From assembly GCF_036898465.1 (NCBI RefSeq), contig NZ_JARUMJ010000001.1, positions 7,006,001 to 7,070,000 on the forward strand: DNA of 64,000 bases, written 5' to 3'. The position numbers and the translations under genes were made by a program. Numbering within the stretch: position 1 is the first letter of the stretch; each line of letters begins with the position of its first letter. Shown piece by piece: positions 49,045 through 64,000 of the stretch. The notes beneath the pieces are model-generated. The model had not been told where the DNA came from, made no database searches, and saw nothing but the letters and a program-made list of their open reading frames with translations. The DNA is from Streptomyces sp. B21-105. Lineage in GTDB: Bacteria > Actinomycetota > Actinomycetes > Streptomycetales > Streptomycetaceae.

Positions 49045-50838
49045 TGATATCCGGTCGACCGCACGTACACCCGTGACGGCGACGGCACCGTGGTGATGTC
49101 CGACGCGGTCACCGAGTCCGTGCAGGGCCAGACGACCAGCCACGCCGGCTGGTCGGACCAGAGCTGCCGGTACGACGCCGCCGGCCGCCTCACCCAGGTC
49201 GACGACACGGTGGAGACGGTCTGCACCCGGCGCACCTACGGCTTCGACAAGCATGCCAACCGCACGTCTCTGACCACGTCCGCCGCGGCCCCCGGTCTGG
49301 ACTGCCCCACCTCCGGAGGAACCAGCAAGACCTCGACGTTCGACAGTGCCGACCGCATCACCGACTCGGGTTACGTGTACGACGCCTTCGGCCGCACCAG
49401 CGCCCTGGCGGGCGGCGTGAGCGTCGGCTACTACACCAACGATCTCGCCTACCAGCAGACCAGCGGCACCAAGCGGCAGACCTGGACCTTCGACGCGGCA
49501 CTGCGCTTCCGCGCGTGGACGGTGGAGACCAACAGCGGCGGCACATGGTCGCCCACCGAGAACAAGCTCAACCACTACGACGGCGACAACGACAATCCGC
49601 GGTGGATCGTCGAGAACACCGCCACCGGTGCCCTGACCCGCAACGTGGGCTCCCTGTCCGGGAACCTCGGCGCGGTCACCAGCGCCACCGGTGACACCGT
49701 GCTCCAGTTCACCGACATCCACGGCGACGTGGCGCTCCAGCTCCCGCTCAACGCGGGCGAGGCGCCGGTCGTCCTGGACACCGACGAGTACGGCAACCCG
49801 CGCGACCGTCAGCAGGCCGTGCGCTACGGCTGGCTGGGCGGAAAGCAGCGCTCCAGCGAGACAGTGGCCGGCTACACCCTCATGGGCGTACGCCAGTACA
49901 ACCCCGCCACCGGCCGCTTCCTGTCGGTCGACCCCCAGCACGGGGGCAACGCCAACGCCTACGAGTACTGCTCGGCCGACCCAGTCAACTGCTTCGACCT
50001 CGACGGCAAATGGGGCTGGAAGAAGATCTTCAAGAGGGCCAAACGCTGGGCCTGGCACAACAAGTGGGACATCGCGCTCACCGCGGCGGGCTTCATCCCC
50101 GGCCTCGGTACCGCCGCGTGGGGCTACCGCGCCTACCGCGGCTACCGTGCCCTGCGAGCGGCCCGCACCATCGCCCGCAGTTGCCGCCGGAACTCCTTCC
50201 TGCCCGAGACGCCGGTCGTCATGGCCGACGGCAGCACCAAGCCGATCAGCCAGGTCGAGGTCGGAGACCTGGTCCAGGCGGTGGACGAGATCACCGGTGA
50301 GACCTCGATCTCCCCGGTCGCAGACGTGATCACCGGTCACGGCACCAAGGACCTCGTCACCTTGTCCGTGGACGCGGACGGCGACGGCACGTCGAAGAAG
50401 ATCACCGCGACCGCCAACCACCCGTTCTTCGTCCAGGGCTGCGGATGGGTCGACGCGGTCCAGCTGAACCCGGGCTCACGCCTGTCGAACCCCAGCGGGA
50501 CCGCACCGAAGGTCACGGCCACCAGCCGCACGCAGGCGGTCCGCACCGTCTTCAACCTGACCGTCGCCGGCACCCACACCTATTACGTGGTGGCTGACGG
50601 ACAGTCCGCGCTCGTCCACAACTGCGCCCGGTACATCCCCAAGAAGCGCAACGTACTGAACTGGTGGCATCCCACCCGATTCAGCAGCAAGGGTGCTGCG
50701 ATCCGCCACGCCAAGCAGGTAGCGCGAACCGGAGGCCGCTGCCGATACCGGGGCCCCTGCGGCTCCGGCAACCACGTGCATGTCGACTTCATCAACCGAT
50801 TCGGACGGATCTTCCGCACGAATCGCTACCGCTGGTGA
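49045..50838 (+). CDS. RHS-repeat protein tip: core, Hint domain and C-terminal toxin
   Basis: ~597 residues open from a TGA at ~49038; the long 5' part of the RHS shell is missing. RHS/YD repeats (SCRYDAAGRLTQVDDTVETV, YVYDAFGRTSALAGG) lead to the RHS core end (GVRQYNPATGRFLSVDPQHG). A short basic hydrophobic link follows. Then comes a Hint domain from NSFLPETPVVMADGSTKPIS through the TANHPFFVQGCGW block to VHNC, the self-cleavage end. The last ~70 residues (ARYIPKKRNVLNWWHPTRFS, CRYRGPCGSGNHVHVDFINR, IFRTNRYRW) are the presumed toxin. It is basic, has an NHVHVD motif, and I cannot assign it. It may be an orphan tip used for recombination or an inactive fragment. Confidence 0.82.
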
Positions 50839-51423: not shown

Positions 51424-51660
51424 ATGACTGTCCCTGTTGCGCCGAATGAGCTCGTGGCCGCCTTGAAGGAACATGCCGGGGTGATGTCCGGACAGGACGT
51501 CGCGCCCAAAAGGGCTGTCGACGTCATGGAGCGGGTACGTGTCGCCGGTGACGGCTCGGTAACCGCAGACGCCGAGCGCATCAGCATCACGAGCCGCTGG
51601 GACTTCATCGTGACGGACCAGGAGGCATCGTCAGTTCGTCGAGGCCCGCGGCGCCGCATC
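51424..51660 (+). pseudogene. Hypothetical protein, 3' truncated
   Basis: Starts TVPVAPNELVAALKEHAGVM with GGAGGAAAGG well placed upstream, and continues SGQDVAPKRAVDVMERVRVA, DAERISITSRWDFIVTDQEA with coding-type codons. At ~51655 it runs into the 3' end of the convergent DUF262 gene and becomes its antisense strand, so the original gene was cut there. I do not recognise it. The junction marks the left border of the helicase/GmrSD operon. Confidence 0.5.
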
Positions 51661-54229
51661 AGATCACATTTCGGGCGTCCCAGCAGCCACGGAACCACGC
51701 GAGTGTCTCGGCCAGCAACTGGCGGTTGTGGTTCTCTTCCAGAAGGGAGAGACGGAAGTTGGGACGCAGTTCCAGCTTTCCCTCGGGGATGTCGACACCC
51801 TTCAGCTCGTTGAGCCGCCGCAGCAGTTCGGCGCGCAGCCCGCGGTCGGTGAACGGCTCACGCGCGGCGAGGTGCTGGAACACCACCTCGGCCGTGCCAC
51901 CGCGTCCGCCGCCCGGGTAGAGCGTCAGCGGCCAGATGCCGCGGCCCGGTGCCCCGGCCTCTCCGAGCATGAGGAACGCGCTGGTGATGGCCTGCCCGGC
52001 TCCGTGGCCGACCCATCCGCCGAGCTCCTCCCAACGGGTGAGGAGGGCACGGACCGCGTCGACCGTTGCAGGGGAGTCGTCTGCCGCGAGCTGACGGAAG
52101 AACCGGTCGGCGCGCGTCTCCTCGCTCTGGCCTTGCACCGTGCGCTGTGCCGTGTCGCCGTCCGCCTGGGTGTCGTCGACGCCGGTGAGCAGGAGGGCGA
52201 GATCGTCGGCAGTGATGCGTTGGGCCGGATCGGCGGCGCCGTTGACCGTGAAGCGGAGGCCGTCCGCGGTCAACCGGGCGCGGACGTCGCCGCCCTCGCC
52301 CGGGGACGTCCAGCGGAACCCGTCGGAGACCTTGCCGTCGGAGGTGAGCACGCGATGGGCGTTGGCCACGCCCGGGGTGGCGGCCAAATGGTTCCCCACG
52401 GCCTGCGCGCCCGAACCGAGGAATGCGGCGAGGTCACCGTAGGACGTCCAGGTGCCGTGAGGCAGCGCCGCGAGTACCTGATGGGCCAGCTGCCAGTCGC
52501 GGCTGCGCTCTGCCCGGCCGATTCCGCGCAGTGGGGCCGGCCACAGTGAGATCGCCCGCTCCGCGAGATCGTCGGCGCGGGCCAGAATCTCCTGCGCGCC
52601 CCACCGGTCGGTGGCGGCGATGCGTCGGTTCATCTCCAGGTGGCTGCCCTTGAGCAGGTCCTGCTTGCGCTCGAACGGGTGGTTGGACAGTTCCGAGTTG
52701 ACCGCCGTGAGGGTCAGGTTGCCGAGCGTATGCCGGAGCCGCGCGTGCAACTCCTCGGCGGTTTCCGTAGCGGCCGCGTCCTCGCTCAGCATCCGCATCC
52801 ACTCGTCCCCCGCGGACTGGGGCAGCACGTGTTCGATCGTGAGCTGCGCGGAGGCGAAGTCCACCGGTTCGGGGTGCCCATGGCTTTCCTCCAGCCGCTG
52901 GAGCACCATCTTGCGCTGGTGCCACCGCCCGTACTGGTAGAAGGGCGCGCTCCGGATCTTCCCGCGCAACTCGTCGTCGTCCGGCCAGAAGCGATTGTCC
53001 GCGGAGAGCAACTGATGCAGTCCGTCGGCCACGGGTACATCCAGCGGCAGCTGTCCGGGCACGGCCTGAAAAACGCGATTGAGGTTGTTCGTCGGCACCC
53101 GGCAGATCATCCGGCGCACCAGGAAGCTCTCGATGTACGACATCGCTCGGGCGGTGTCCGAGGAGCCGATCTCTCCGCGCTCACGTCGGTCCAGCAGCAG
53201 CATCAGAGCGGGGTAGGTGACCTGGGCCTGCCAGGTGTCCAAACGGCGCAAGTGGGCACGGACGGCGGGGTCCTGCTCCTCCTCGGGGTGGAGCAGGCGA
53301 CGGAACAGCGCGCCGCGGTGGTGCAAGTCCCTGATGTACGCCTCGATCTCCGCTTCGGTGATCTCGCGGCGCTCGAAGTGCTGTTGCTGAGACGCGTACA
53401 GGTCTTGACGGCGCACACGGTCGTCCCCGCCCAGCACCAACTGGAGCCACATGAGCTGTTCGAGTTCGTCGTTGCTCAGGCTGTTCTGCAGCGGCAGCCA
53501 GTAGGTCTCGTAGACGTGCTCGCCACGGGTGGGCATCCGCATGAAGAGGTAGTTGCGCAGCAGGTCGGCTTGGCTGAGCTTGAGACCGGTGTTGTTGAGG
53601 GACTCGAAGATGCGGTGGACGTTGTCGCCGCGTTCGGCGGTCACCGCGACCAGAGTGAGCCTGGACGTGATGGCCTGCTCGATGCGGAACACGTCCTGCG
53701 GGGCGGCCGGATCTTCCGCTTCGAGGAGTTTGCGGCGGAAGAAGCCGTAGGCCGTGCCGACGTTTCCGCCGCCTGCCTGTGTTCCGAGCGGACCACGGAC
53801 GTGCGCGGCGAACTGTGGCCGGTCGGCCTGCGTCGGCAGCAGCCGGAAATGGTCGGTGCCGTTCTTGCGCTTGTTGATCAGGTATTCCTCGTCGATGCGC
53901 TCGGCCTCGTCCGGCTGGGCGTCCGCGATGTGGTCGCGGATCGCGGCCAGAGCGAGTGACAGCGTCGTCAGCCGCTGCTGACCGTCGACGACGAGCCATC
54001 GAGGGAACGTCGCCTCGTTCTGCGGGGAAGGCGCCAGGACGACGGAGCCCAGGAAGTGGGTGCTAGCTCCGTCCCCGGACTCCAGCAGCTCGGCCTGCTC
54101 CAGGATGTCGGCCCACAGCTGTCCGAGTTGCCGCTCGGTCCAGGAGTACGTCCGCTGATAGAGCGGCACCTGGAACTGCTGGGCCCTGCCCTGCACGAGA
54201 TCGGCGAACAGGGTCTCCTTCGCCTGCAT
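51659..54229 (-). CDS. DUF262-DUF1524 (GmrSD-type) protein with alkyltransferase-like domain
   Basis: 856 residues. The DUF262 domain opens with FQVPLYQRTYSW (residues ~19-30) and has the ParB-like nucleotide motif VVDGQQRLTT (~80-89). The DUF1524 HNH-type nuclease domain carries IEHVLPQ (~464-470) and LGNLTLTAVNSELSNHPFERK. GmrSD proteins cleave modified phage DNA using NTP. Uncommonly, a domain like the DNA-binding part of O6-alkylguanine alkyltransferase follows (~585-640: LPHGTWTSYGDLAAFLG, HRVLTSDGKVS) without the catalytic PCHR cysteine. The last ~200 residues are unassigned. ATG 54229 follows GGGGGAC. It is the last gene of the operon, 105 bases after the helicase gene. Confidence 0.88.
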   Translation of the reverse strand: MQAKETLFADLVQGRAQQFQVPLYQRTYSWTERQLGQLWADILEQAELLESGDGASTHFLGSVVLAPSPQNEATFPRWLVVDGQQRLTTLSLALAAIRDHIADAQPDEAERIDEEYLINKRKNGTDHFRLLPTQADRPQFAAHVRGPLGTQAGGGNVGTAYGFFRRKLLEAEDPAAPQDVFRIEQAITSRLTLVAVTAERGDNVHRIFESLNNTGLKLSQADLLRNYLFMRMPTRGEHVYETYWLPLQNSLSNDELEQLMWLQLVLGGDDRVRRQDLYASQQQHFERREITEAEIEAYIRDLHHRGALFRRLLHPEEEQDPAVRAHLRRLDTWQAQVTYPALMLLLDRRERGEIGSSDTARAMSYIESFLVRRMICRVPTNNLNRVFQAVPGQLPLDVPVADGLHQLLSADNRFWPDDDELRGKIRSAPFYQYGRWHQRKMVLQRLEESHGHPEPVDFASAQLTIEHVLPQSAGDEWMRMLSEDAAATETAEELHARLRHTLGNLTLTAVNSELSNHPFERKQDLLKGSHLEMNRRIAATDRWGAQEILARADDLAERAISLWPAPLRGIGRAERSRDWQLAHQVLAALPHGTWTSYGDLAAFLGSGAQAVGNHLAATPGVANAHRVLTSDGKVSDGFRWTSPGEGGDVRARLTADGLRFTVNGAADPAQRITADDLALLLTGVDDTQADGDTAQRTVQGQSEETRADRFFRQLAADDSPATVDAVRALLTRWEELGGWVGHGAGQAITSAFLMLGEAGAPGRGIWPLTLYPGGGRGGTAEVVFQHLAAREPFTDRGLRAELLRRLNELKGVDIPEGKLELRPNFRLSLLEENHNRQLLAETLAWFRGCWDARNVI

Positions 54230-54334
54230 GATGTCCCCCCTGGCGAACCGTGTGTGACGACGTGCGGCAACGACCCTATGACCTCCGCCGGGGCACAGGT
54301 GGGCCAAGGCGGAAACCTGCCCCGGAGCCGGGAG

Positions 54335-56629
54335 TCACCTCCCGCCGCGGTCGGTCTGCGCCCACGAGCTGTCGAGGAACGGGCTGGGCCTGCCGTGCCA
54401 GAAGACGTCCACACTGTCGCGAGCCCGGGTCGCGGCCACGAAGAGCAGGGACCGGGCGCGCTGCATCTCGTGCCGGTAGCGGGCGGGTTCACGGTCACGC
54501 AGTCGGCTCACGTCCTCGCGCGGAACGAGCCCGTCGGTCACGCCCGCGATGATCATCCGCTGGTACTCCAGCCCCTTGAACCGGAACATCGTGCCGATGT
54601 GCACCCCGGTGGAGCCGTTCGGCCCGTCGGAGCGGATCTCCACCGAGTCGACGCCGTGCAGCTTCAGCGTGTACCCCAGCTCGGTCGCCATCTGATTGGT
54701 CGGGACGCACACCGCGATCCGCTCGTGCGGGACAGCCGTGTCCGGGTCCGTGTCCCACTCCGTGATCAGAGCGGCGACACCCTCCCGCTCGGCCTCCCAG
54801 TCCGGGAAGGCGTGCCCGGCCGGGAGGCCGCCGTTGAGCACGGACCGGTATCCGGCGAGGGTCTCCGTGCCGCCGTCGAGATCGTCGTACGTCGTCTCGC
54901 CCAGGACTGCGAGGGCCGAGCGCAGGATCTGCCGCGTGGTGCGGTAGCTGAGGGTCAGCTTCGCGGACCGGCCGCGGATGTTGACGCCCAGACTGCCGAG
55001 CGTCACCTGGTTCTTGTAGATGCGCTGGTGGGTGTCGCCCACCAGGAACAGGTCGTCCGACGTACGGGGGGCCATGGCGCGCAGCATCTTCCAGTGGGCG
55101 GGGCGCAGGTCCTGGGCCTCGTCCACCACGATGTGGCGGTACCGGTAGCGCAGCCGGCCTCCGGAGCCGTCCTGCAGGTGGATGTTGTCGAGGCCACCCG
55201 CTTCCTCCCGCTGCCGCGCGATGTTCCGGATGCGTTGTTCCCGGCCCATCTCCAGGCGCGCCGCGCGCTCCGCCACCTGGTCCCAGGTCTGCCGCCCGAG
55301 CCGGTCGAGCCGCTGGGCGAAGCGTTCGGCGAGCTGCCAGATCTCGGCCCGCTCGCCGCGGCCGACGCTCTTGCCGCGCCCGGCCCGCCGGGCACGGAAG
55401 TAGTCGGTGCGGCTGCCGACCGCCTGGCCGAGGATGACCTGGGTCCACTCCTCGTGCAGGAATTCCGGGTCCCAGGTGTTCTCGCCCAGTTCGTCGAGCA
55501 GTGCGCGCCACTCGCGTACGGCCTGCCCGTCGTCGATGGCCTGCTTGCCGTTGCCGGGTTCGGCCTCGCGGACGACGCGCAGCGCCAACTGGTCGACGTG
55601 ACTCACGTCGACCCGGCCGAGCAGTTCCTCACCGCCCAGCTCCAGCAACCGGGAGCGCAGGTCGGCGGCGAGGTTCTTGTTGTAGGTGGTGAGCAGGACC
55701 GGCTTGTCGTGCCCCGGGGGGAGTTGCCGGACGAGGTGGCGTACCCGGTGCAGGGCGACGACGGTCTTGCCCGTGCCGGGCCCGCCTCCGACCCGTGCCG
55801 GTCCGTTGTAGCGGCGCTCGACGAGTCTGGCCTGAGTGGGGTGCAGGAAGCTCTTCCACCGGCCGAAGTCACCGCTCTCCAGGGCTCCGCGCAGGTCCTC
55901 GTCCGTGGTGGTGACGACCGTGGCCGGTCGCCGGGCGGCGGCCGCGAAGTCGTCCGGGTCGACCGGCTCGGTGGCGGCCACCGGTCGGGTCACCTGGTCG
56001 AGCACGTCGTCGTACGACGCGCCGTCGAACAGGGCGATCAGCACCTCGCCGGTCAGCTGCGGCGCGTACTCGACGAGTCCCAGCAACTGGTCCTCGGTGG
56101 TGAGCGTGCGGATGACCGGCAGCAGGGGTTCCGCGACGCCGAGTTCGGACAACTGAAGGTCGGAGAGGGCCGTGAACAGGGGCTCGGACCGCGACACCGG
56201 GGGGAGCGGTTCGGGGGCGGCCGGCGGGTGCGGTTCGGGCGTGGCGGCCGGTGCCGGGGCGGTCGCGCCGGGCAGCCTGCCCAGGACGCTGTCCTCCACC
56301 ACCTCCAGATCGACGTACTCGATGCCGCCGGTGACCTGGTTGACCCCGTACGAGAGCCGGTTGTAGACGTCCTTGCGGTGCTTGACGGAGACGATCAGCC
56401 AGTCGTCGTCGGCGAGGCGCAGCAGCAGGGCCCGGTACTCGTCGTTGACGCGTGCCGACCACAACCGGTGGTCGCCCTTGAGCTGCTGGAGTTTGAGGCC
56501 GGTGGTGTGCGGGTTCGTCCTGAACTTGTGCTGGAAGTCGAAGAAGGCGCCCTTGACCGTGCGGGGCAGCTTGAGGATCTCCTTGTCGGCCCGGTCGAGC
56601 AGGCGCAGTGTGACGCCGGAGGTGGTCAT
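54335..56629 (-). CDS. UvrD/Rep-type helicase with RelE/ParE-like N-terminus
   Basis: 764 residues. Residues 1-~95 (RLLDRADKEILKLPRTVKGA, LKLQQLKGDHRLWSARVNDE, YRALLLRLADDDWLIVSVKH) have the RelE/ParE toxin-like fold. A Pro/Ala linker and a helical region follow. The superfamily-1 helicase shows Walker A GGGPGTGKTVVA (~279-290), DEAQDL (~503), LTLSYRTTRQI (motif IV), GTMFRFKGLEYQRM (motif V) and FVAATRAR (motif VI). It should unwind or translocate on DNA 3'-5'. Its ATG overlaps the stop of the giant helicase gene by 4 bp, so the two proteins are made together. Confidence 0.88.
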   Translation of the reverse strand: MTTSGVTLRLLDRADKEILKLPRTVKGAFFDFQHKFRTNPHTTGLKLQQLKGDHRLWSARVNDEYRALLLRLADDDWLIVSVKHRKDVYNRLSYGVNQVTGGIEYVDLEVVEDSVLGRLPGATAPAPAATPEPHPPAAPEPLPPVSRSEPLFTALSDLQLSELGVAEPLLPVIRTLTTEDQLLGLVEYAPQLTGEVLIALFDGASYDDVLDQVTRPVAATEPVDPDDFAAAARRPATVVTTTDEDLRGALESGDFGRWKSFLHPTQARLVERRYNGPARVGGGPGTGKTVVALHRVRHLVRQLPPGHDKPVLLTTYNKNLAADLRSRLLELGGEELLGRVDVSHVDQLALRVVREAEPGNGKQAIDDGQAVREWRALLDELGENTWDPEFLHEEWTQVILGQAVGSRTDYFRARRAGRGKSVGRGERAEIWQLAERFAQRLDRLGRQTWDQVAERAARLEMGREQRIRNIARQREEAGGLDNIHLQDGSGGRLRYRYRHIVVDEAQDLRPAHWKMLRAMAPRTSDDLFLVGDTHQRIYKNQVTLGSLGVNIRGRSAKLTLSYRTTRQILRSALAVLGETTYDDLDGGTETLAGYRSVLNGGLPAGHAFPDWEAEREGVAALITEWDTDPDTAVPHERIAVCVPTNQMATELGYTLKLHGVDSVEIRSDGPNGSTGVHIGTMFRFKGLEYQRMIIAGVTDGLVPREDVSRLRDREPARYRHEMQRARSLLFVAATRARDSVDVFWHGRPSPFLDSSWAQTDRGGR

Positions 56630-59600
56630 CGCTTCGGCTCCCCGTCGCTGGTGGTGTCCTTGTTCGGGTCCCGGCCTTCGAGCCGGGCGATCAGCTCGGC
56701 GCTGTCCCAGTCGGCCGCCGTGCGGACCGTCCAGCCGGCCGCTGTGAACGCGCGCTCCTGGTCCTCGGCCTCGTAGTCCGGCTCGTCGCCGGCCGGGCGG
56801 GGGGCGCGGACCACGCCGATCAGGGCGTCCGGCCAGGCGAGATCGGCCTGCCAGCCGTGGCCGTCCAGTTCGTAGCCGTCCCGCGGGAGCGGCACCGCCG
56901 CCGAGGCCAGCGCGTGTGCGAGGGCGGCGAGCCCCGGCTCCTCCGGGTCCAGCAGCTCGATGACCTGGTCCCAGCCGGGGTCCCGGCCGTGGTCCGTGCG
57001 GCCGCGCTGCTCCGCCGCATCCGCTTCCCGCGCGGCGGTGTCGTCGGCGGGGACGGCGGGGACGGCCGGTACGGCGGCGGCTTCCACGGCGGAGGGCTCC
57101 TCCGCGGGCCGGGGCGCCGGGATGCGCGCGGAGGACAACCAGCCCTCTCCGCCGGTCACGGTGAGGACCTCGGGGTCGAAGCCGTCGAGCATGCCCGATG
57201 TCAGCTGCGCGCTGTCACCGCCGCCGTGTTCGAGGAACTGCAGCACATTGCCCCACCAGAGCCAGGCGCGCCAGCGCCGCTTGTGAGCCGGCCCTTCCTC
57301 CAGGGCCGCGGCGCTGTCGTCGAGCACGGCCAGTCCCGTCCACACGGGCGGGGTCCGCCTGCCGTCGGCGGCCAGCACCAGGCGGCAGCCCGAGGCGTCG
57401 GAGCCGTACAGCATCCGCACCGGCCCGGCGGCCCCGGCGGCTACGCCTTCGCGCAGCGCCTCCCGGATGCCCGCTGCGGCCTCGGCGCCGGTGAGGGCGG
57501 CGCCACGGATCCCGGTGGCCCCGCTCATGCCCGCGGCCACCGCTTCCGCCCGCCGTCGCCAGCGTTCGGGATCGGGCGAGCGCAGGTAGGCCAGCAGCAT
57601 CCGGGCCGGGTTGACCCACATGGTCTCGGCGAGTTCGCCGGGCAGCCCGCGGCCCACCCGGTCGTAGTAGTCGCGGGCGCGTTGTCGGCCGGTGGTGTCG
57701 TAGGGCGTCCACACGGAGATGTCCGCGTCGGTCCCCGCGTACCCGGAGTCGTTGATCCGGCGGCGCCACGCCATCACGTCGTGGTAGGTCAGCTGGAACA
57801 CCCGCAGCCCGTCGGCCCGGAGCCGGGTGCGCTTCACGGCGTCGTCCGCGAGCCGGTTGTGTTCGCGGGTGGCGTGGTACGCGTAGCCGTCGAGGTACAG
57901 CGCGACGCGCGGACTCGGGGAGTCCAGCCGCTCCAGGAGTATGTCGGGCCGGGTGCCGTCCAGCGCGCGCTGCTGGGAGACGCGCCAGCTGACGGTGGAG
58001 CCGTCCGGTGCCGTGAGCCGCAGGTCCAGGGCGTAGGTGCCGGCCGAGGTGGTGTAGGCGTCCGCCGCGGCCTTGGATTCCGGGAGCTTGGCCCAGTCCC
58101 GCAACGTCTCGACGAACAAGACCTCGAGGTCGCTCTCGGCCTGCCGCTGAATCGGGATGTCCTGGGTGGTCCTGACCCGTGAGGTGCGCCAGCGTTCTCC
58201 TTCGGCGCCCAGGAGTTCGTCCAGCATCTGCCGGACCTCGTTGCGGCTGACCTTGTCGTAGTCGGCGGCCGGCACCCGCCGCAGCAGGCACTGGTGGCAG
58301 CCGTCCATGCCCTTCTCCTGGCACGGGCAGTGCTCGATGACGTCCCGTGCCCGGAGCAGTACCTCCCGGAAGCCGTCCGCGGAGGCCAGCCGGTGCAGGT
58401 AGCCGGTGCCGCCGGGCAGCCGGTCGTAGACGACCAGGAAGCGCCGGGGCCAGTCGGTCTCCGGGTCGCCCGCGTCGTCGGGCATGGTCGCCTCGGCGAT
58501 GTCGATGTGGTCGGGATCGCCGCCGTAGCGGGCGGCGATCCCCGCGAACAGGGCGGCGGTGAACGACGCGAGGCGCTCCTTGAAGCGGGCCACCGAGGCG
58601 GGCAGCAGGATGCGGACGGCCTCGGTGGTCAGTTCGTGGGCCAGCAGCAGGGGCACGTCCCGGCCCGCGCCCTGCGCTCCGACCGTGCTCGCCGCGGCGC
58701 CACGGATCCGACGGCGCGGGCACCACAGCAGATGGTGCGCCGAGGCCGGGGCGCTCGCCGCGCCGGACTCGGTGAGCGCGTGCTGGGGCACGTCCACCAC
58801 CGGTCTGCCGTCGGCCGTCGCGCCGCCGCAGGAGGTGCAGACGTAGAAGGGGTTGAGGCGGACGTCCTCCCCGGCGAGCGGCACCGTGCTGCTGCCGTCC
58901 TCGCGGTCGAGGCCCAGGTTCAGGGTCCGGATCGTGGCGTGACGCGTGAAGTCCACGCCGAACACGGCCCCGTCGTGCCGCCAGGATCCGGGAACGAGAC
59001 GGTCGGGGTCGATGTCGACGGTGGTGAGGGTCGCGTAGTGCCTGCGGTCGCGTTCGTCGCGGTCGTCGCGCACCCGGGCGTCCTCGCGCCTGTCGCGGGA
59101 CAGCACACGCCGGGGACGCAGCACGTACTGCACGCAGCCCGCGTCGGCGATCTCCCGGCCGCGGCAGCGCGGGCACGGCGTCGTGTCGCGCTCGGCGTTC
59201 TCGGTCCGCACGTAGCCGCAGGCGGGACAGAGCCGCCACACCGACCAGGAGCGCCGGTCGGGGCCGCCGATGTCGAGGGCGCGGACCACGTGCCGGTAGC
59301 CGTTGACGTAGAAGCTGTTGCCGGGGGCGAGTTCGGTCAGGGCCAGGGTGCTGGACCGTTCGTAGTCCCGGGTCTCGCTGCGGTACACCTTGGCCGCGGC
59401 CGGCCGGGCCCCCTCCTCCTGCGGGCCGTCCTCCTCGTCGGGGGTCTGAGACCAGTACAGCGTGGCTTCCAGCCGGGTGGTGGTGTCCGTCAGGCTGTAG
59501 TTCGGCAGCAGGCCGAGGTCCACCAGGGTGGCGTGAGCGGCGGACTGGCTCAGTTCCCGCAGCAGGTCCCCGGCGGCACGGCGCTCGGCCAGCAGTTCGC

Positions 59601-62600
59601 GCCGCTCCCGCTCCTGCGTGTCGTCGGACGAGGCGAGCTGCCCGGCCGCCTCGTCGATCGCCGCGATTCTGCGGCGCACCTCCTCGCGCCGGCCGGTCCA
59701 GTCCTCCTCCGCCTCCTGAAGCACCCGGACGATTCCGCCGGTCGCGTACGCGCGCAGTTCGTCCGCCGCGTGCTCCGAGACGCCCTCCATGTCGGTGTCC
59801 TGGCCGTCGCCGGCGGGGAACAGCGCGAGGAAGTCCTCCACGAGGCGCGTCCCGTGTGTCTGCGCGGCGTCCGCGAGATCCTGGCACCATCCGCCGGTGC
59901 CGAACAGGGCGGACGACAGCCGGGGCACGGGCGGGAGGGTTTCGCCGTCCGAGGTCCGCAGTTCCCCGCGGGCCGCCAGGTCCAAGAGCCGGGCTGTGTA
60001 CTGGCGGCGCAGGATCTCCACGGCCGACAGGTAGCAGCCGGGCGGCAGGATGGTCCCGGCGATCATCTCGCGTGGCTGGTCCAGGTAGTACAGGTCGCGT
60101 GCCCGGCGTCCGCCGAAAGCGACCACCAGCGCGTTGCCGGTGCGTCGTCCGGCCCGCCCCGCCCGCTGCACGTAGTTGGCCGGACCGGCGGGCAGGGAGC
60201 CGAGCAGGACGGCCGACAGGTCGCCGATGTCGATGCCGAGTTCCAGGGTGGGGGTGCACGCCAGGACGTTGGGGTCGGTGTAGTGCGTGCCCGCCTTGAA
60301 GGCGCGCTCGACGCGCTCCCGTTCGGGACGGCTCAGCATGCCGGTGTGCTCGGCCGTCACCACGCGGAACGTGCCGCCCGTCAGGTAGAGGCGCCGGTAG
60401 TAGTCCCGGCGGTAGTCCCGCTCCCGCACGGGCCGTTCGGGGCGGAGGCCTTCGACTCCGGTGGTGGAGATGTCGGGCTGCGGCGCGGTGAGGCGTCCCT
60501 TGCACCGATAGCGGGGGCAGGGGTGGCCGTACCAGCGGGTGCGCCGCTCGGGGACGACGACCTGCTGCCAGCCGCAGTCCTCGCAGGCGACGAAGGCCTT
60601 GTTGACGACGGCGTCGTCGAGCAGTCGTACCTGGATGTGACCGGGCTGGAGCCCGTACACCCGGGTCTGACGGTCGCGGCTGGTGCGCGCCGACAGGACA
60701 CCGGCGTCGGCGAGGTGGGGCAGCAGTCTGCGCAGGTACTCGGTCGCGCCGGCGGCGTCCAGGTCCAGACATCGGCGGGTCCAGTCCTGGTACCAGCCCA
60801 GCCGTCCGGTGACCGCGTCGAACTCGGACCCGTCCTTCTGTCCGTCCAGCAGGAACCGCGGCGGAGCGACGCCCTCGGGGAAGGCGGGCATGCCGTCGGG
60901 TCTGCGCCCGGAGATGAGGTAGCGGTTGACGCCGGCTTCCTTGATCCAGGTGTCGAGCCAGCGGTGCCGCACCGCGCCGCGCTGCCGCAGCCGCTCCAGC
61001 AGACCCCGGAGGTAGGCGAGATAGCGCTCGGGTGTGGGCAGCCCGCCCACGGCCAGCAGCTGGCCGGGCAGGGCCAGGTGAACGTCCCGGGCGAGGTCGG
61101 TGACTCCGTCGGGGTCGGCCACCGTCACCTCGGCCGCCGCGGTCCGGGTCAGTTCCAGGGTGCGGCCCATGCGGCTGCGCAGCCCGAACTCCATGACGGT
61201 CGCGAAGGCCAGCCGCTCGCCGATCAGCCTCCAGGTGCGCGCGTCGCCCGTGCCCCGGCCGGACAGCAGCCGGTCGACGCCCGGCTCGTCGTGGAGGTCG
61301 GGGGGCACGACGGCGGCCAGCGCCTCGGGATCGTCCACCGACTCCAGGACCAGCCCGATCAGGTCGTTGAGCGCCGTCGGAGCCCCGGATTCGTCCAGGT
61401 TGTGCGCGAGCAGCGAGCGCAGGGAGAACTTGTACGAGGCGTTCGCGACGTATCCCGCCCGGTGTGCCGCGTCCTGGGTGGAGTCGTTGAACAGCAGCGT
61501 CTTGCGTTCTTCCGGGACGAGCGCGATGTCGCCGCCGGTGAACAGCTGGGTGACCGTCGCCGAGGCGAGGGCCGCCTGGGCGGTACCGAGGAAGCGGATG
61601 CTGTTGTCGGTGTGGCAGGCCGGGCACCGGTCGTCCTTCGCGGCCCGGTCGGCGCTCTTGCGGTCGAGCACGGCCAGCGCGAACCAGGCGTCGATCAGTT
61701 CCCCGTCGTCCGCGGGGGTGGGCAGTCGGTAGGCGCCCCGTGAGCCGTCCAGGACGACGACGGACAGCGGGTCGACGCCGCCGTCCGAGGGCCGGGCCCC
61801 GGTGAGCGCGTCGAGGGTCTGCCGTCGCTCACCTGGCGTGGCGGCGATGAAGTAGCGCAGGCGCCGCTTGTCCCGGCCGACACCGGCCCGCCAGATGCGG
61901 TCCTGCGCGGTGACGAGCTGCTGCGGATCGGCCTCGGGGGACAGCGCGGCCCATCCGGAGCGTCCGCAGGTGCGGCAGTACACGGCCGGAAGGTGCACCT
62001 GGGCGGGGCGCGGGGCGGTGTCGGCGCCCGGCAGGGGCTGTGGCCGGCGGCTCGACGCGTACGACGGCATGCTTGCGGAGGAGGCGTCCGCGTCCTCCTC
62101 GCCGGGCGGCCCGGCGTTGAGCGCCTCCCGGCGGGCGGCGGTCCGGTCGTCCTCGTACCAGCGGAACTCGGGGGCCGGTCCGACTCCGCGCAGCACGCGG
62201 GTCACGGGCCGCACCCACAGGTGCGCCTCGATGTGCAGCAGCGGCCGGGGGCTGCGCTCGTCGGAGTCCGGGTCGCGGGCGGCGGACAGGAGTGCCACGA
62301 ACCGGGAGAGCGCCTGGAGCGCCAGCCGGGGGTTCTCGCGCGCGGTGCGGCCCCAGGCGTACCCGAACCGGGGGCCGAGCCGGTCGCGCAGCGTCCATTC
62401 GTCCAGTGGTTCGCCGTCGAGCAGCGACAGCACGCCGAGGGTGAAGTCGTGGCGCTTCAGCATCCGTCCGACGCGGAAGACGTCCAGGCCGCTGCGGCCC
62501 AGCAGCCGGGTGGCGAGCGCGTCCAGGTCCAGCAGGTCGGGCCGTGCCTCGACGTCCGGCCCGCCGGACACCGCGACGACCTCCTGCGGGCTCGGCGGTT

Positions 62601-63561
62601 CGGGCAGCTCGTAGTCGACGGCGCCGGTGAACTCGTCGGCGGTCATCCGCTCCTCGCCGACGACCGCGTCCGCGGGGAACGGCATGCCGAAGACCCGCGC
62701 CGCCACGTCGAGGACGCCCCCGGCCTCCTTGCCGGGCGCTCCCTCGCCGAGGGTCGCCGAGGTCGCCACCGGGCAGATCGACCCCAGGGGCCGACCGGGC
62801 CTGGCCGCGCCGGTGGCGGCGGCGAGCCTGCGCAGCAGCATCGCCACGTCGGTGCCCTGCGCGCCGTCGTACGTGTGGAACTCGTCCAGCACGACGTACG
62901 CGGGCTCGGCGCCCTCCCACAGCCCCCGGTCCTCGCCGCGCTGGAGCAGCAGATCGAGCATCTTGTAGTTGGTGATCAGTACGTCGGGCGGTGACAGACG
63001 CATCTCCTCGCGCCGCGTCATCACCCGCCGGAAGTCGGTGTCGGGCCGGTCGCCGATGTACAGCCCCGCCGTGACCTGGGCCAGCTCCGGACGCGCCAGG
63101 TACTCGGCGATGCGTCCCGCCTGGTCGGTGGCGAGCGCGTTCATGGGGTAGAGCAGCACCGCCTTGATCCCGCGCACGCCCTCGGCCTTCCGCCGTCGGC
63201 AGTGGTCCAGCACGGGGACCAGGAAGGACTCGGTCTTGCCGGATCCGGTGCCGGTGGTCACCAGCGTCGGCCGGGCGGGCCCGTGCAGGGTGGACAGCCG
63301 GGCCCACGCCTTGGCCTGATGCCGCCACGGAGCGAACCCGGGGAACCCCGCGGACCACTCCACGTCCCGTCGCCAGCCGTCGCCGGCGACGTGGAACGGT
63401 GTCCGGATCCGCAGGTAGGGGCCGCGGAAGATGCCGGTCTCGGGGTGCCCGAGGAAGCGTTCCAGGGCGCCGCGGGTGGTCTCGTCGGCGAGGGCGTACG
63501 TCGTCGTGAGGTACTGCGTGAGACTGCCGCGCAGCTGCGCGGCGGCCATGGTGGGCTTCAC
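56626..63561 (-). CDS. Giant DEAD-type helicase with DUF1998 and PD-(D/E)XK-like domains
   Basis: 2311 residues. N-terminal superfamily-2 helicase: Walker A TTGTGSGKTESF (~103-113), VLDEFHTYDGAQG (DEFH, ~226-229) and CPVATSATLGEG; then motifs V-VI, LELGIDIGDL and YVQRAGRAGRR, near residue 1107-1150. Between the two helicase lobes is a very large insert with Cys pairs (CRTCG, CPACH, CEDCGW). After them come more zinc clusters (CPACGYV..CPRCRG ~1447; CTSCGG). The MrfA/DUF1998 cysteine cluster is HCPCQEKGMDGCHQCLL (~1740). A PD-(D/E)XK-like core (RPDILLE..RVALYLDGYAYH, ~1877-1900) and an acidic tail follow. The helicase plus DUF1998 pairing is known from MrfA (DNA repair) and DISARM. GTG 63561 follows AAGGGGGA. 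Confidence 0.88.
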   Translation of the reverse strand: MKPTMAAAQLRGSLTQYLTTTYALADETTRGALERFLGHPETGIFRGPYLRIRTPFHVAGDGWRRDVEWSAGFPGFAPWRHQAKAWARLSTLHGPARPTLVTTGTGSGKTESFLVPVLDHCRRRKAEGVRGIKAVLLYPMNALATDQAGRIAEYLARPELAQVTAGLYIGDRPDTDFRRVMTRREEMRLSPPDVLITNYKMLDLLLQRGEDRGLWEGAEPAYVVLDEFHTYDGAQGTDVAMLLRRLAAATGAARPGRPLGSICPVATSATLGEGAPGKEAGGVLDVAARVFGMPFPADAVVGEERMTADEFTGAVDYELPEPPSPQEVVAVSGGPDVEARPDLLDLDALATRLLGRSGLDVFRVGRMLKRHDFTLGVLSLLDGEPLDEWTLRDRLGPRFGYAWGRTARENPRLALQALSRFVALLSAARDPDSDERSPRPLLHIEAHLWVRPVTRVLRGVGPAPEFRWYEDDRTAARREALNAGPPGEEDADASSASMPSYASSRRPQPLPGADTAPRPAQVHLPAVYCRTCGRSGWAALSPEADPQQLVTAQDRIWRAGVGRDKRRLRYFIAATPGERRQTLDALTGARPSDGGVDPLSVVVLDGSRGAYRLPTPADDGELIDAWFALAVLDRKSADRAAKDDRCPACHTDNSIRFLGTAQAALASATVTQLFTGGDIALVPEERKTLLFNDSTQDAAHRAGYVANASYKFSLRSLLAHNLDESGAPTALNDLIGLVLESVDDPEALAAVVPPDLHDEPGVDRLLSGRGTGDARTWRLIGERLAFATVMEFGLRSRMGRTLELTRTAAAEVTVADPDGVTDLARDVHLALPGQLLAVGGLPTPERYLAYLRGLLERLRQRGAVRHRWLDTWIKEAGVNRYLISGRRPDGMPAFPEGVAPPRFLLDGQKDGSEFDAVTGRLGWYQDWTRRCLDLDAAGATEYLRRLLPHLADAGVLSARTSRDRQTRVYGLQPGHIQVRLLDDAVVNKAFVACEDCGWQQVVVPERRTRWYGHPCPRYRCKGRLTAPQPDISTTGVEGLRPERPVRERDYRRDYYRRLYLTGGTFRVVTAEHTGMLSRPERERVERAFKAGTHYTDPNVLACTPTLELGIDIGDLSAVLLGSLPAGPANYVQRAGRAGRRTGNALVVAFGGRRARDLYYLDQPREMIAGTILPPGCYLSAVEILRRQYTARLLDLAARGELRTSDGETLPPVPRLSSALFGTGGWCQDLADAAQTHGTRLVEDFLALFPAGDGQDTDMEGVSEHAADELRAYATGGIVRVLQEAEEDWTGRREEVRRRIAAIDEAAGQLASSDDTQERERRELLAERRAAGDLLRELSQSAAHATLVDLGLLPNYSLTDTTTRLEATLYWSQTPDEEDGPQEEGARPAAAKVYRSETRDYERSSTLALTELAPGNSFYVNGYRHVVRALDIGGPDRRSWSVWRLCPACGYVRTENAERDTTPCPRCRGREIADAGCVQYVLRPRRVLSRDRREDARVRDDRDERDRRHYATLTTVDIDPDRLVPGSWRHDGAVFGVDFTRHATIRTLNLGLDREDGSSTVPLAGEDVRLNPFYVCTSCGGATADGRPVVDVPQHALTESGAASAPASAHHLLWCPRRRIRGAAASTVGAQGAGRDVPLLLAHELTTEAVRILLPASVARFKERLASFTAALFAGIAARYGGDPDHIDIAEATMPDDAGDPETDWPRRFLVVYDRLPGGTGYLHRLASADGFREVLLRARDVIEHCPCQEKGMDGCHQCLLRRVPAADYDKVSRNEVRQMLDELLGAEGERWRTSRVRTTQDIPIQRQAESDLEVLFVETLRDWAKLPESKAAADAYTTSAGTYALDLRLTAPDGSTVSWRVSQQRALDGTRPDILLERLDSPSPRVALYLDGYAYHATREHNRLADDAVKRTRLRADGLRVFQLTYHDVMAWRRRINDSGYAGTDADISVWTPYDTTGRQRARDYYDRVGRGLPGELAETMWVNPARMLLAYLRSPDPERWRRRAEAVAAGMSGATGIRGAALTGAEAAAGIREALREGVAAGAAGPVRMLYGSDASGCRLVLAADGRRTPPVWTGLAVLDDSAAALEEGPAHKRRWRAWLWWGNVLQFLEHGGGDSAQLTSGMLDGFDPEVLTVTGGEGWLSSARIPAPRPAEEPSAVEAAAVPAVPAVPADDTAAREADAAEQRGRTDHGRDPGWDQVIELLDPEEPGLAALAHALASAAVPLPRDGYELDGHGWQADLAWPDALIGVVRAPRPAGDEPDYEAEDQERAFTAAGWTVRTAADWDSAELIARLEGRDPNKDTTSDGEPKR

Positions 63562-63662
63562 GACGGTCCCCCTTGCGATGCCGTGCCCTGGTGATCGGTA
63601 CCACCGTATAGCGGTGACCGACAGGCCGGGTGTTCGGTGTCCGGCCTGGTCAGCCGCCCTGG

Positions 63663-64000
63663 CTACTGCCAGCCCGCCAGTTCGTCGGCGAAGTCGCGGA
63701 ACGAGCGGTTGTTGCCGCTGGGGCGCGCGCTCACGTGGCCGTGCCGGACAGCCTCGTCCATGATCTTCGGAGAGTGGGATTCCCGGTAGGTCGGCTTTCC
63801 GAGATGCCTCTTCAAGTGCTCTTTCGGGTCCGGCAGGAGACCCAGGTCGCGGCGACAGTCCTGGGGACGCATAGCCCAGCCCCGGTTCACTTTGGGAAAG
63901 GCGTCCGGGAACTGCATCAGCCACGCCTCCATCTCGACCGCGGCCAAGGCCAGGGCGGAGTTGCAGGGGAGCCCCGCGCGAAGTTGTGCTGTGACCCGGT
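63663..64000 (-). CDS. DUF4276-like protein, partial at window edge
   Basis: The last ~112 residues of a gene that begins beyond the right edge. They read LALAAVEMEAWLMQFPDAFP, DLGLLPDPKEHLKRHLGKPT and YRESHSPKIMDEAVRHGHVS, and end FRDFADELAGWQ. AxExWL..DP.A, DPK..L and Y+E.+.P are the features I associate with the DUF4276 family, proteins with a TOPRIM-like fold that often sit in defence operons with AAA ATPases. It is in the same orientation as the giant helicase gene, 101 bases upstream of its start, so the operon may continue to the right. Confidence 0.55.
   Translation of the reverse strand, partial: RVTAQLRAGLPCNSALALAAVEMEAWLMQFPDAFPKVNRGWAMRPQDCRRDLGLLPDPKEHLKRHLGKPTYRESHSPKIMDEAVRHGHVSARPSGNNRSFRDFADELAGWQ

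What the first reader, a model, noticed from the sequence alone, without database searches (positions are those of the whole stretch)
51659..64000. Possible new anti-phage or DNA-processing operon: giant MrfA-like helicase-nuclease, ParE-UvrD helicase, and GmrSD-ATL protein
Three very large genes are tightly packed on one strand (4-bp overlap, then a 105-bp gap). Seen directly: an SF2 helicase of 2311 residues with a DUF1998-type cysteine cluster and a PD-(D/E)XK-like segment, an SF1 helicase with a RelE/ParE-like head, and a DUF262-DUF1524 protein. Known: helicase plus DUF1998 occurs in MrfA repair proteins and split between DrmA/DrmB in DISARM; DUF262-DUF1524 is the GmrSD restriction architecture. 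The three together do not match a named system I know. It borders a region full of mobile-element debris, a usual defence-island setting. The operon may include the DUF4276-like gene at the edge.
Basis: partly seen in the sequence, partly recalled or inferred. Interest (0 to 1): 0.88.

Follow-up and report, generated by a model that had tools for sequence, protein, structure and literature searches.

The report
Streptomyces ARMADA phage defence with kinase
The giant helicase-nuclease and the RelE-headed helicase are half of a recently described anti-phage system called ARMADA Type II, whose other two genes lie just outside the window; in most actinobacterial copies examined it has an extra dedicated protein kinase and often a slot where other defence genes are inserted, while the third gene of the finding is only a passenger.

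Summary
The three genes are real, but not a three-gene system. The 2311-aa helicase and the RelE-UvrD helicase are ArmC and ArmD of ARMADA Type II (Bell et al. 2025 preprint, shown anti-phage in E. coli). ArmA (SNF2 helicase) and ArmB (PglX-like methyltransferase) lie 8-17 kb upstream, outside the window. All four match the E. coli ATCC 8739 proteins over most of their length, in the same order; all eight residues mutated in the published work are conserved. GmrSD-ATL is not core: relatives lie in the flanks of 6 of 80 related loci, in varying places and orientations. The DUF4276 gene at the edge is a decayed cassette's remnant.
Two features seem new. (1) A soluble Ser/Thr kinase gene directly precedes armA in 51 of 54 actinobacterial loci where this can be seen; 23 of 25 kinases in a tree form one clade, co-diverge with ArmA and end in a conserved tail. 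E. coli ATCC 8739 has none there; the preprint's main text never mentions a kinase. (2) armB and armC have no gene between them in 29 loci, but in 25 a cargo bay holds Menshen, caspase-helicase, HEC-01 or other genes, usually behind an XRE/HATPase pair. I propose a kinase-gated, cargo-carrying ARMADA variant; its function is inferred, not tested.

The parts
56626..63561 (-). armC: giant YprA/DruE-like SF2 helicase with MZB/DUF1998 and a C-terminal Vsr-like nuclease region (2311 aa)
   Evidence: 29% identity over 2020 columns to E. coli ATCC 8739 ArmC, 621 bits; Walker A K109 and Walker B D226 conserved
62749..63324 (-). armC DEAD domain (RecA1)
   Evidence: Pfam PF00270 E 5.8e-18
60142..60357 (-). 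armC Helicase_C domain (RecA2)
   Evidence: Pfam PF00271 E 3.1e-11
58285..58557 (-). armC MZB/DUF1998 zinc-binding domain
   Evidence: Pfam PF09369 E 1.2e-11
57757..58149 (-). armC Vsr-like PD-(D/E)XK nuclease region (about residues 1805-1935)
   Evidence: E1813, D1873, H1896 each in over 97% of 79 sequences; middling structural match to 3hrl and 3r3p
54335..56629 (-). armD: GajB-like UvrD (SF1) helicase with N-terminal RelE-fold head (764 aa); start overlaps the armC stop by 4 bp
   Evidence: 31% identity over 756 columns to E. coli ArmD, E 1.5e-97; K288 and D503 conserved
56360..56629 (-). armD RelE/ParE-fold head (about residues 1-90)
   Evidence: AlphaFold pLDDT 83, Foldseek to RelE/YoeB
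51659..54229 (-). GmrSD-ATL protein (DUF262-DUF1524-ATL, 856 aa): accessory cargo, not ARMADA core
   Evidence: Pfam; PADLOC Orf5 2.7e-142, HEC-06 3.3e-68; relatives in flanks of 6 of 80 loci
63663..64000 (-). Remnant of a HEC-01B/DUF4276-type gene (runs past the window end, to extended coordinate 64055); only an N-terminal scrap of its AAA-ATPase partner remains upstream. The bay cargo, armB, armA and the kinase lie beyond the window end: see the Full report section for their extended coordinates
   Evidence: intact pair in L022 matches PADLOC HEC-01A and HEC-01B

Best explanation
The locus is an ARMADA Type II anti-phage system (armA-armB-armC-armD) of an actinobacterial sub-type that carries a dedicated Ser/Thr kinase gene upstream of armA and a cargo bay between armB and armC. 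Shown here: orthology and gene order, conservation of the residues tested in E. coli, and linkage and co-divergence of the kinase. Inferred from the E. coli work: it blocks phage directly and non-abortively, and needs all four Arm proteins. Inferred by analogy with Druantia III DruE: ArmC loads on ssDNA-containing phage replication intermediates, translocates and cuts with its Vsr-type nuclease, while ArmA, ArmD and the methyltransferase ArmB help recognise or remodel non-self DNA. Inferred by analogy with Pgl (PglW kinase + PglX methyltransferase): the kinase senses or relays infection and phosphorylates an Arm subunit, most likely ArmB or ArmA, docking through its conserved C-terminal [LIM]RxxY[AT] tail. 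The bay cassettes, and the GmrSD-ATL gene beyond armD, are separate defence modules sharing the island.
For: ArmA-D match E. coli ATCC 8739 ARMADA II in the same order, with ArmC 621 bits against 121 bits for DruE of Druantia III. Eight of eight residues mutated by Bell et al. are conserved in the window and in all aligned homologues (30 ArmA, 39 ArmB, 78 ArmC, 79 ArmD, window included). armD follows armC in 79 of 80 loci, the other contig ending inside armC. A kinase gene is directly upstream of armA on the same strand in 26 of 27 loci and in 25 of 28 further armA loci with upstream sequence. 23 of 25 armA-linked kinases in the tree form one clade (98/99) apart from the 29 rows (27 distinct) of other kinases taken from the window's genome. 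Kinase and ArmA distances correlate (rho 0.83, n=50, 0 of 2000 permutations as high). The C-terminal tail is in 47 of 50 but in only one of 30 own-genome kinase ORFs, the ARMADA one. An annotated S. jietaisiensis plasmid shows kinase-armA-armB-armC-armD in a row, confirmed by tblastn, and its kinase has the tail too.
Against: No function was tested in Streptomyces. ARMADA works in E. coli without a kinase, and some actinobacterial copies lack it (Actinomyces, Rhodococcus and Arthrobacter; Tsukamurella), so it cannot be essential to the core chemistry. The kinase target is unknown. L077, L089 and a second armA at L164 have a kinase without the tail, and in the tree L077 and L089 fall outside the main clade, which shows exchange. 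Kinase-ArmA correlation is expected in part from shared host descent, and many loci are closely related Streptomyces. For the 30 armA loci I did not check linkage to the armC locus one by one. The Vsr assignment rests on residue conservation and a middling fold match.
Confidence: 0.82

Rival explanations
1. One reading: the giant helicase, ParE-UvrD and GmrSD-ATL form one new three-gene defence or DNA-processing system.
For: Tight packing on one strand. A GmrSD-ATL gene also lies beside a ParE-UvrD helicase in four other genomes, L180-L183, so the two families do meet repeatedly.
Against: GmrSD relatives lie in the flanks of only 6 of 80 loci, upstream or downstream and on either strand. The 96% ArmC locus L022 has none in its flanks. 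The GmrSD-ATL genes most similar to the window's (92, 81 and 78%) have no ParE-UvrD in the 1.5-kb flanks. No GmrSD gene is annotated in the 49 kb around E. coli ATCC 8739 ARMADA II, and the E. coli system was reported to need its four genes.
Confidence: 0.04
2. The kinase is not an ARMADA component but a linked regulator or an independent kinase-type defence gene (compare PD-T4-6), kept next to armA for expression or by hitchhiking.
For: PADLOC's best matches are mad6 and PD-T4-6 kinase models. The gap to armA varies from -4 to 258 bp. Other kinases sit downstream of armD in ten loci.
Against: One main clade, co-divergence with ArmA, a clade-specific tail and a fixed position in many actinobacterial genera.
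Confidence: 0.3
3. The operon is a Druantia variant, as the PADLOC hits DruE3/DruE1 suggest.
For: PADLOC DruE3 E 6.7e-84; the preprint places ARMADA YprA homologues closest to those of Druantia.
Against: ArmC matches E. coli ArmC over residues 4-1930 (621 bits), DruE III only over two helicase segments (121 and 78 bits). No DruH, DruABCD or DruMFG hit is among those listed for the neighbours scanned. ArmA, ArmB and ArmD are present.
Confidence: 0.03
4. The locus is DNA repair (MrfA-like) rather than defence.
For: MZB/DUF1998 is named for MrfA, and YprA 6znp is a PDB profile match (E 2e-23).
Against: Four-gene orthology to a tested anti-phage system and neighbouring defence cassettes. The best PDB profile match is a 2108-aa DEAD/DEAH box helicase, 9tu7 (E 1.4e-57).
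Confidence: 0.02

Closest known systems
ARMADA Type II (Bell et al. 2025, PMC12458937; E. coli NCTC 12900 and ATCC 8739)
   Same: Four core genes, same order, homology over most of each protein, tested residues conserved, RelE head on ArmD, nuclease-like C-terminus on ArmC
   Different: Here armB and armC are separated by 8.3 kb of cargo, a kinase gene precedes armA, and no Druantia or Zorya was found among the neighbours scanned
Druantia (DruE)
   Same: Giant YprA-like helicase with MZB/DUF1998 and a C-terminal nuclease-type domain
   Different: Different partner genes; matches E. coli DruE III only in helicase segments
DISARM class 1
   Same: SNF2-type (DrmD-like) helicase, DrmMI-like methyltransferase and helicase/DUF1998 modules
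   Different: Helicase and DUF1998 fused in one protein with a Vsr-like region; ArmD present; no DrmC/PLD hit among genes scanned
Pgl / BREX type 2 (Streptomyces coelicolor; abstract of PMC4365076, passages of PMC12839542)
   Same: A protein kinase (PglW) with a PglX-type methyltransferase
   Different: No PglZ or BrxC/PglY hit among island genes scanned; the kinase here is a soluble protein of about 320-470 aa, PglW is 1400-1600 aa and multi-domain
GmrSD type IV restriction / PADLOC Orf5 and HEC-06
   Same: DUF262 + DUF1524 architecture of the gene at 51659..54229
   Different: Extra ATL-type domain; a passenger in this locus

Membership tests
ARMADA Type II | BrxHII/RapA-like SNF2 helicase ArmA | tested here: met
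   36% identity over 857 columns, E 2.6e-157 to E. coli ArmA
ARMADA Type II | PglX-like methyltransferase ArmB with GxG and NPPW motifs | tested here: met
   34% and 33% identity over two segments; G644 and N1089 conserved
ARMADA Type II | YprA-like helicase ArmC with MZB/DUF1998 | tested here: met
   29% over 2020 columns, 621 bits; Pfam MZB
ARMADA Type II | Vsr-type nuclease at the ArmC C-terminus | tested here: inconclusive
ARMADA Type II | GajB-like UvrD helicase with RelE-like head (ArmD) | tested here: met
   31% over 756 columns; RelE fold
ARMADA Type II | Gene order ArmA-ArmB-ArmC-ArmD on one strand | tested here: met
   met with a cargo interruption between armB and armC
ARMADA Type II | Anti-phage activity needing all four genes | not testable with these tools
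   Shown for E. coli in the preprint; not for this locus
ARMADA Type II | ArmC inside the ARMADA II clade of a YprA family tree | not tested
   Only pairwise scores against E. coli ArmC and DruE III were computed
Druantia | DruE with DruH, DruABCD, DruMFG or DruFL partners | tested here: not met
   Neighbours are ArmA, ArmB, ArmD and cargo; the DruE III match is partial
DISARM | Separate DrmA and DrmB genes plus DrmC PLD nuclease | tested here: not met
   Helicase and MZB in one ORF; no DrmC hit in the listed matches of the genes scanned
Pgl / BREX type 2 | PglZ and BrxC/PglY | tested here: not met
   No such hit listed for the island genes scanned; small ORFs were not all scanned
Three-gene system of the finding | GmrSD-ATL conserved with the other two | tested here: not met
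   6 of 80 loci in flanks

The most novel reading that the evidence does not exclude
In most Actinomycetota examined, ARMADA Type II is a five-component system: a dedicated, co-diverging Ser/Thr kinase with a conserved docking tail acts as infection sensor or switch (a second, independent coupling of kinase signalling to a PglX-type methyltransferase, like PglW-PglX), and the armB-armC junction is a standard docking site in which other complete defence systems (Menshen, EACC1-caspase-helicase, HEC-01) are carried, often behind an XRE/HATPase regulator, making ARMADA a modular multi-layer defence platform.
Probability: 0.55. Interest if true: 0.72.

Novelty: new variant of a known kind. Interest (0 to 1): 0.55.

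Why it matters
It turns an unnamed trio into a named, tested defence system and corrects its limits. If the kinase is a true component, it supplies a candidate trigger for ARMADA, testable with a single deletion or kinase-dead allele in a laboratory Streptomyces, and suggests that phospho-control of PglX-type methyltransferases arose more than once in actinobacterial immunity. The armB-armC bay gives a defined place to mine for further defence cassettes in sequenced actinobacteria. With PADLOC-DB 2.0.0 the giant protein's best match is DruE, so such loci are easily taken for Druantia.

Tried and rejected
Rejected: the three-gene unit; Druantia, DISARM and Pgl membership (see Membership tests). 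Considered: Hma. HmaA is only a secondary PADLOC hit for ArmA (2.4e-48 against DrmD 1.4e-82), and Hma is described as a helicase, an m5C methyltransferase and an ATPase (passages of PMC8565338), so it was not pursued.

Led nowhere: Foldseek on the ArmC C-terminal model gave no hit at E<=0.001. The own-genome DNA search found only short matches elsewhere. MADS literature was not found in the library, so the mad6 comparison rests on the PADLOC label alone. The words 'Hma-embedded' or 'embedded candidate' were met only in a search listing; that this is what HEC stands for is recalled. PADLOC's 'Orf5' label could not be traced. Also recalled, from no call: Menshen as the name behind NsnABC; DUF2397/DUF2398 as Wadjet-type JetA/JetB; the reading of the c78/c79 pair as McrB-like (PADLOC gave REase_II and PDC-S14 for c78 and nothing for c79).

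Unresolved: whether GmrSD-ATL and ParE-UvrD genes associate beyond both being island genes. A ParE-UvrD lies within the flanks of 5 of 22 GmrSD match loci (the window is one of the five) and, from coordinates-14 kb away in three more genomes (G009, G032, G044). The two searches covered different sets (61 and 120 genomes).

Limits: cluster names in the cargo census come from scanning one or two representatives of each cluster; gene calls come from my own codon-usage caller. Two pairs of own-genome kinase rows in the tree were the same ORF taken twice, and 5 of the 35 own-genome kinase matches were not in the tree.

Not done: a full YprA tree; a census beyond the 80 loci returned (558 candidates encoded a relative, the best 80 were kept); metagenome or viral scans; a check that each armA is on the same stretch as the armC locus.
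Full report
WHAT IS THERE. The 2311-aa protein has DEAD, Helicase_C and MZB/DUF1998 domains; the 764-aa protein has UvrD domains and a head that AlphaFold and Foldseek place among RelE/YoeB-type toxins; the 856-aa protein is GmrSD_N-GmrSD_C-ATL. The window ends inside the locus. Adjoining sequence of the same 9.2-Mb genome shows, in transcription order and in extended window coordinates (genome contig C1 minus 7,006,000; gene calls): Ser/Thr kinase 80187-81563 (-), 458 aa; armA, SNF2 helicase, 77069-80101 (-), 1010 aa; armB, PglX-like methyltransferase, 71872-77034 (-), 1720 aa; XRE-DUF5753 regulator 70760-71617 (+); HATPase 70122-70601 (-); EACC1 69593-69976 (-); caspase-AAA helicase 65696-69586 (-), 1296 aa; Beta-family gene 64593-65648 (+); the remnant of an AAA-ATPase/DUF4276 pair ending at 63663; then the three genes of the finding.

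WHAT IT IS. A genome scan with an alignment of the giant protein returned 80 loci, most with 10-kb flanks (558 candidates encoded a relative, the best 80 were kept; all titles are actinobacterial). ParE-UvrD follows the giant in 79 of 80, the other contig ending inside armC. The SNF2 helicase and the methyltransferase precede it, directly or after an interval. This is the gene set and order of ARMADA Type II in Bell et al. 2025 (PMC12458937; I read parts 1-4 of 8, that is through the start of Methods, plus one methods section and the figure legends, and searched the main text for words; the supplement was not available). I fetched the E. coli ATCC 8739 island named there and compared proteins: ArmA 36% over 857 columns, ArmB 34% and 33% over two segments, ArmC 29% over 2020 columns (621 bits, against 121 bits for the Druantia III DruE of the same island), ArmD 31% over 756 columns. 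All eight residues that the authors mutated are present in the window's proteins (ArmA K158, D258; ArmB G644, N1089; ArmC K109, D226; ArmD K288, D503) and in every aligned homologue: 30 ArmA, 39 ArmB, 78 ArmC, 79 ArmD. I therefore file the locus as ARMADA Type II. The weakly tested feature is the Vsr nuclease.

GMRSD-ATL IS A PASSENGER. tblastn finds a GmrSD relative in the flanks of 6 of 80 loci; gene calling clusters five of these with the window's and places them upstream or downstream and on either strand. L022, whose ArmC is 96% identical, has none in its flanks. In 120 genomes, 20, the window's own included, had a GmrSD match at E<=1e-30. The three most similar (92, 81 and 78%) have no ParE-UvrD in the 1.5-kb flanks, while in four genomes (L180-L183) a more distant GmrSD-ATL (47-49%) lies next to a ParE-UvrD-like gene; in the two of these read over 14 kb (L166, L167) there is no ArmC. 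So the two families meet repeatedly in islands, but not as a fixed unit with ArmC.

THE KINASE. Of 27 loci with an armA over 850 aa and a called gene upstream of it, 26 have a kinase-cluster gene directly upstream on the same strand, with gaps of -4 to 258 bp. For 30 loci, mostly ones with armA out of view, I searched their genomes for armA (29 of 30 genomes matched; linkage to armC was not checked one by one). Of the 30 armA loci returned, two start at contig ends; 25 of the remaining 28 have the kinase upstream. Counting L101/L161 once, that is 51 of 54. The three misses are Arthrobacter, Actinomyces and Rhodococcus. Among four named records, the S. jietaisiensis plasmid has kinase-armA-B-C-D in a row, while the Tsukamurella and Haematobacter plasmids and E. 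coli ATCC 8739 lack a kinase there. Outside the position before armA, 16 of 744 other non-core genes are in the kinase cluster (from: 42 of 770 in all). The armA-linked kinases have no strongly hydrophobic segment (19-residue Kyte-Doolittle maximum 1.84), and catalytic motifs are intact in most. In an IQ-TREE tree of 70 rows, 23 of 25 armA-linked kinases, the window's included, form one clade (98/99) apart from 29 rows (27 distinct) of other kinases of the window's genome; L077 and L089 group with one of those instead. Kinase and ArmA distances correlate at rho 0.83 (n=50; highest of 2000 permutations 0.32). The tail [LIM]RxxY[AT] lies within the last 60 residues of 47 of 50 armA-linked kinases (all but L077, L089, L164) and of 1 of 30 own-genome kinase ORFs, namely this one; the S. 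jietaisiensis plasmid kinase ends in it too. 'Kinase' does not occur in the preprint's main text, and two paper searches showed no other report; the supplement could still hold it.

THE CARGO BAY. armB and armC are both in view in 54 of 80 loci: 29 with no called gene between them (28 with gaps of -37 to 9 bp, mostly 4-bp overlaps; L100 has a 2.3-kb gap) and 25 with one to nine genes over 1.1-9.7 kb. An XRE-DUF5753 gene is present in 19 of the 25 and a HATPase in 18. Cassettes recur (named from one representative of each cluster): NsnABC (7-8 loci, plus 4 where armB is out of view), AAA-DUF4276 = HEC-01A/B (6, plus 4), EACC1-caspase-helicase (6) and Beta (6, plus 2). None of these lies downstream of armD in the 80 loci, whereas the Mrr-like, c78/c79 and JetA/B-type clusters appear only there; the flanks seen are at most 10 kb. 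Gene calls come from my own codon-usage caller, so small genes may be missed.

HOW IT LIKELY WORKS. In E. coli, ARMADA II protects directly, without abortive death, and needs all four genes. DruE, a studied relative, loads on 3' ssDNA and cuts long DNA, with nuclease activity tied to higher-order assembly (passages of PMC13192584). By analogy ArmC is the helicase-nuclease effector on phage replication intermediates. Pgl, described in Streptomyces coelicolor, needs PglW kinase activity, with a model in which phosphorylation activates PglX (abstract of PMC4365076). A kinase directly ahead of a SNF2-PglX-like pair suggests the same logic: kinase to ArmB/ArmA to ArmC/ArmD. The kinase step is hypothesis.

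VERDICT. The core system is known since 2025. The kinase-bearing, cargo-carrying actinobacterial form is, as far as these searches reach, an undescribed variant.

Noticed in passing
G000:C1:7973208-7977024 (L165:7209-11025): The window's genome holds a second RelE-UvrD helicase (715 aa, about 42% to an ArmD) directly downstream of a 536-aa kinase and no ArmC in the 16 kb read: a possible stand-alone kinase + ParE-UvrD pair.
   Followed up: partly
L166, L167, L168, L169, L170: Lone ParE-UvrD genes in five other genomes of the same genus lie next to GmrSD-ATL (L166, L167), DISARM drmAB (L168) or the c78/c79 pair (L169, L170); no ArmA-C at E<=1e-20 in the 14 kb read. The helicase seems a general island partner.
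   Followed up: partly
Extended coordinates 81769-84005 (+), outside the window: DUF2397 gene followed by a DUF2398 gene matching only the first 151 of 363 profile positions; no further Wadjet-type gene among the neighbouring ORFs scanned: probably a broken Wadjet-like remnant.
   Followed up: partly
63663..64000 and on to about extended coordinate 64260: An AAA-ATPase/DUF4276 (HEC-01-like) cassette is complete directly before armC in L022, L023, L026, L046, L090 and L095 but decayed here: only an N-terminal Walker-A scrap and the tail of the partner remain.
   Followed up: yes
L038, L040, L041, L044, L045, L048, L051, L084, L085, L096: A different kinase group (87/51 support) sits directly downstream of armD in these ten loci; four of them (L041, L051, and L044 and L084 with copies cut by the locus edge) also have a kinase upstream of armA.
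   Followed up: partly
L194 (Tsukamurella tyrosinosolvens plasmid): A helicase gene and a DUF1998 gene (DISARM drmA/drmB-like by annotation), UvrD genes and ARMADA armA-armB-(split armC)-armD lie head to tail in one run.
   Followed up: no
window 49090..50838: Gene with a pretoxin HINT domain and RHS-like repeats close to the defence locus.
   Followed up: no
L195 (Haematobacter massiliensis plasmid): A WYL-domain gene precedes armA in place of the kinase, and a hypothetical gene sits between armB and armC, so the bay position is used outside Actinomycetota too.
   Followed up: no
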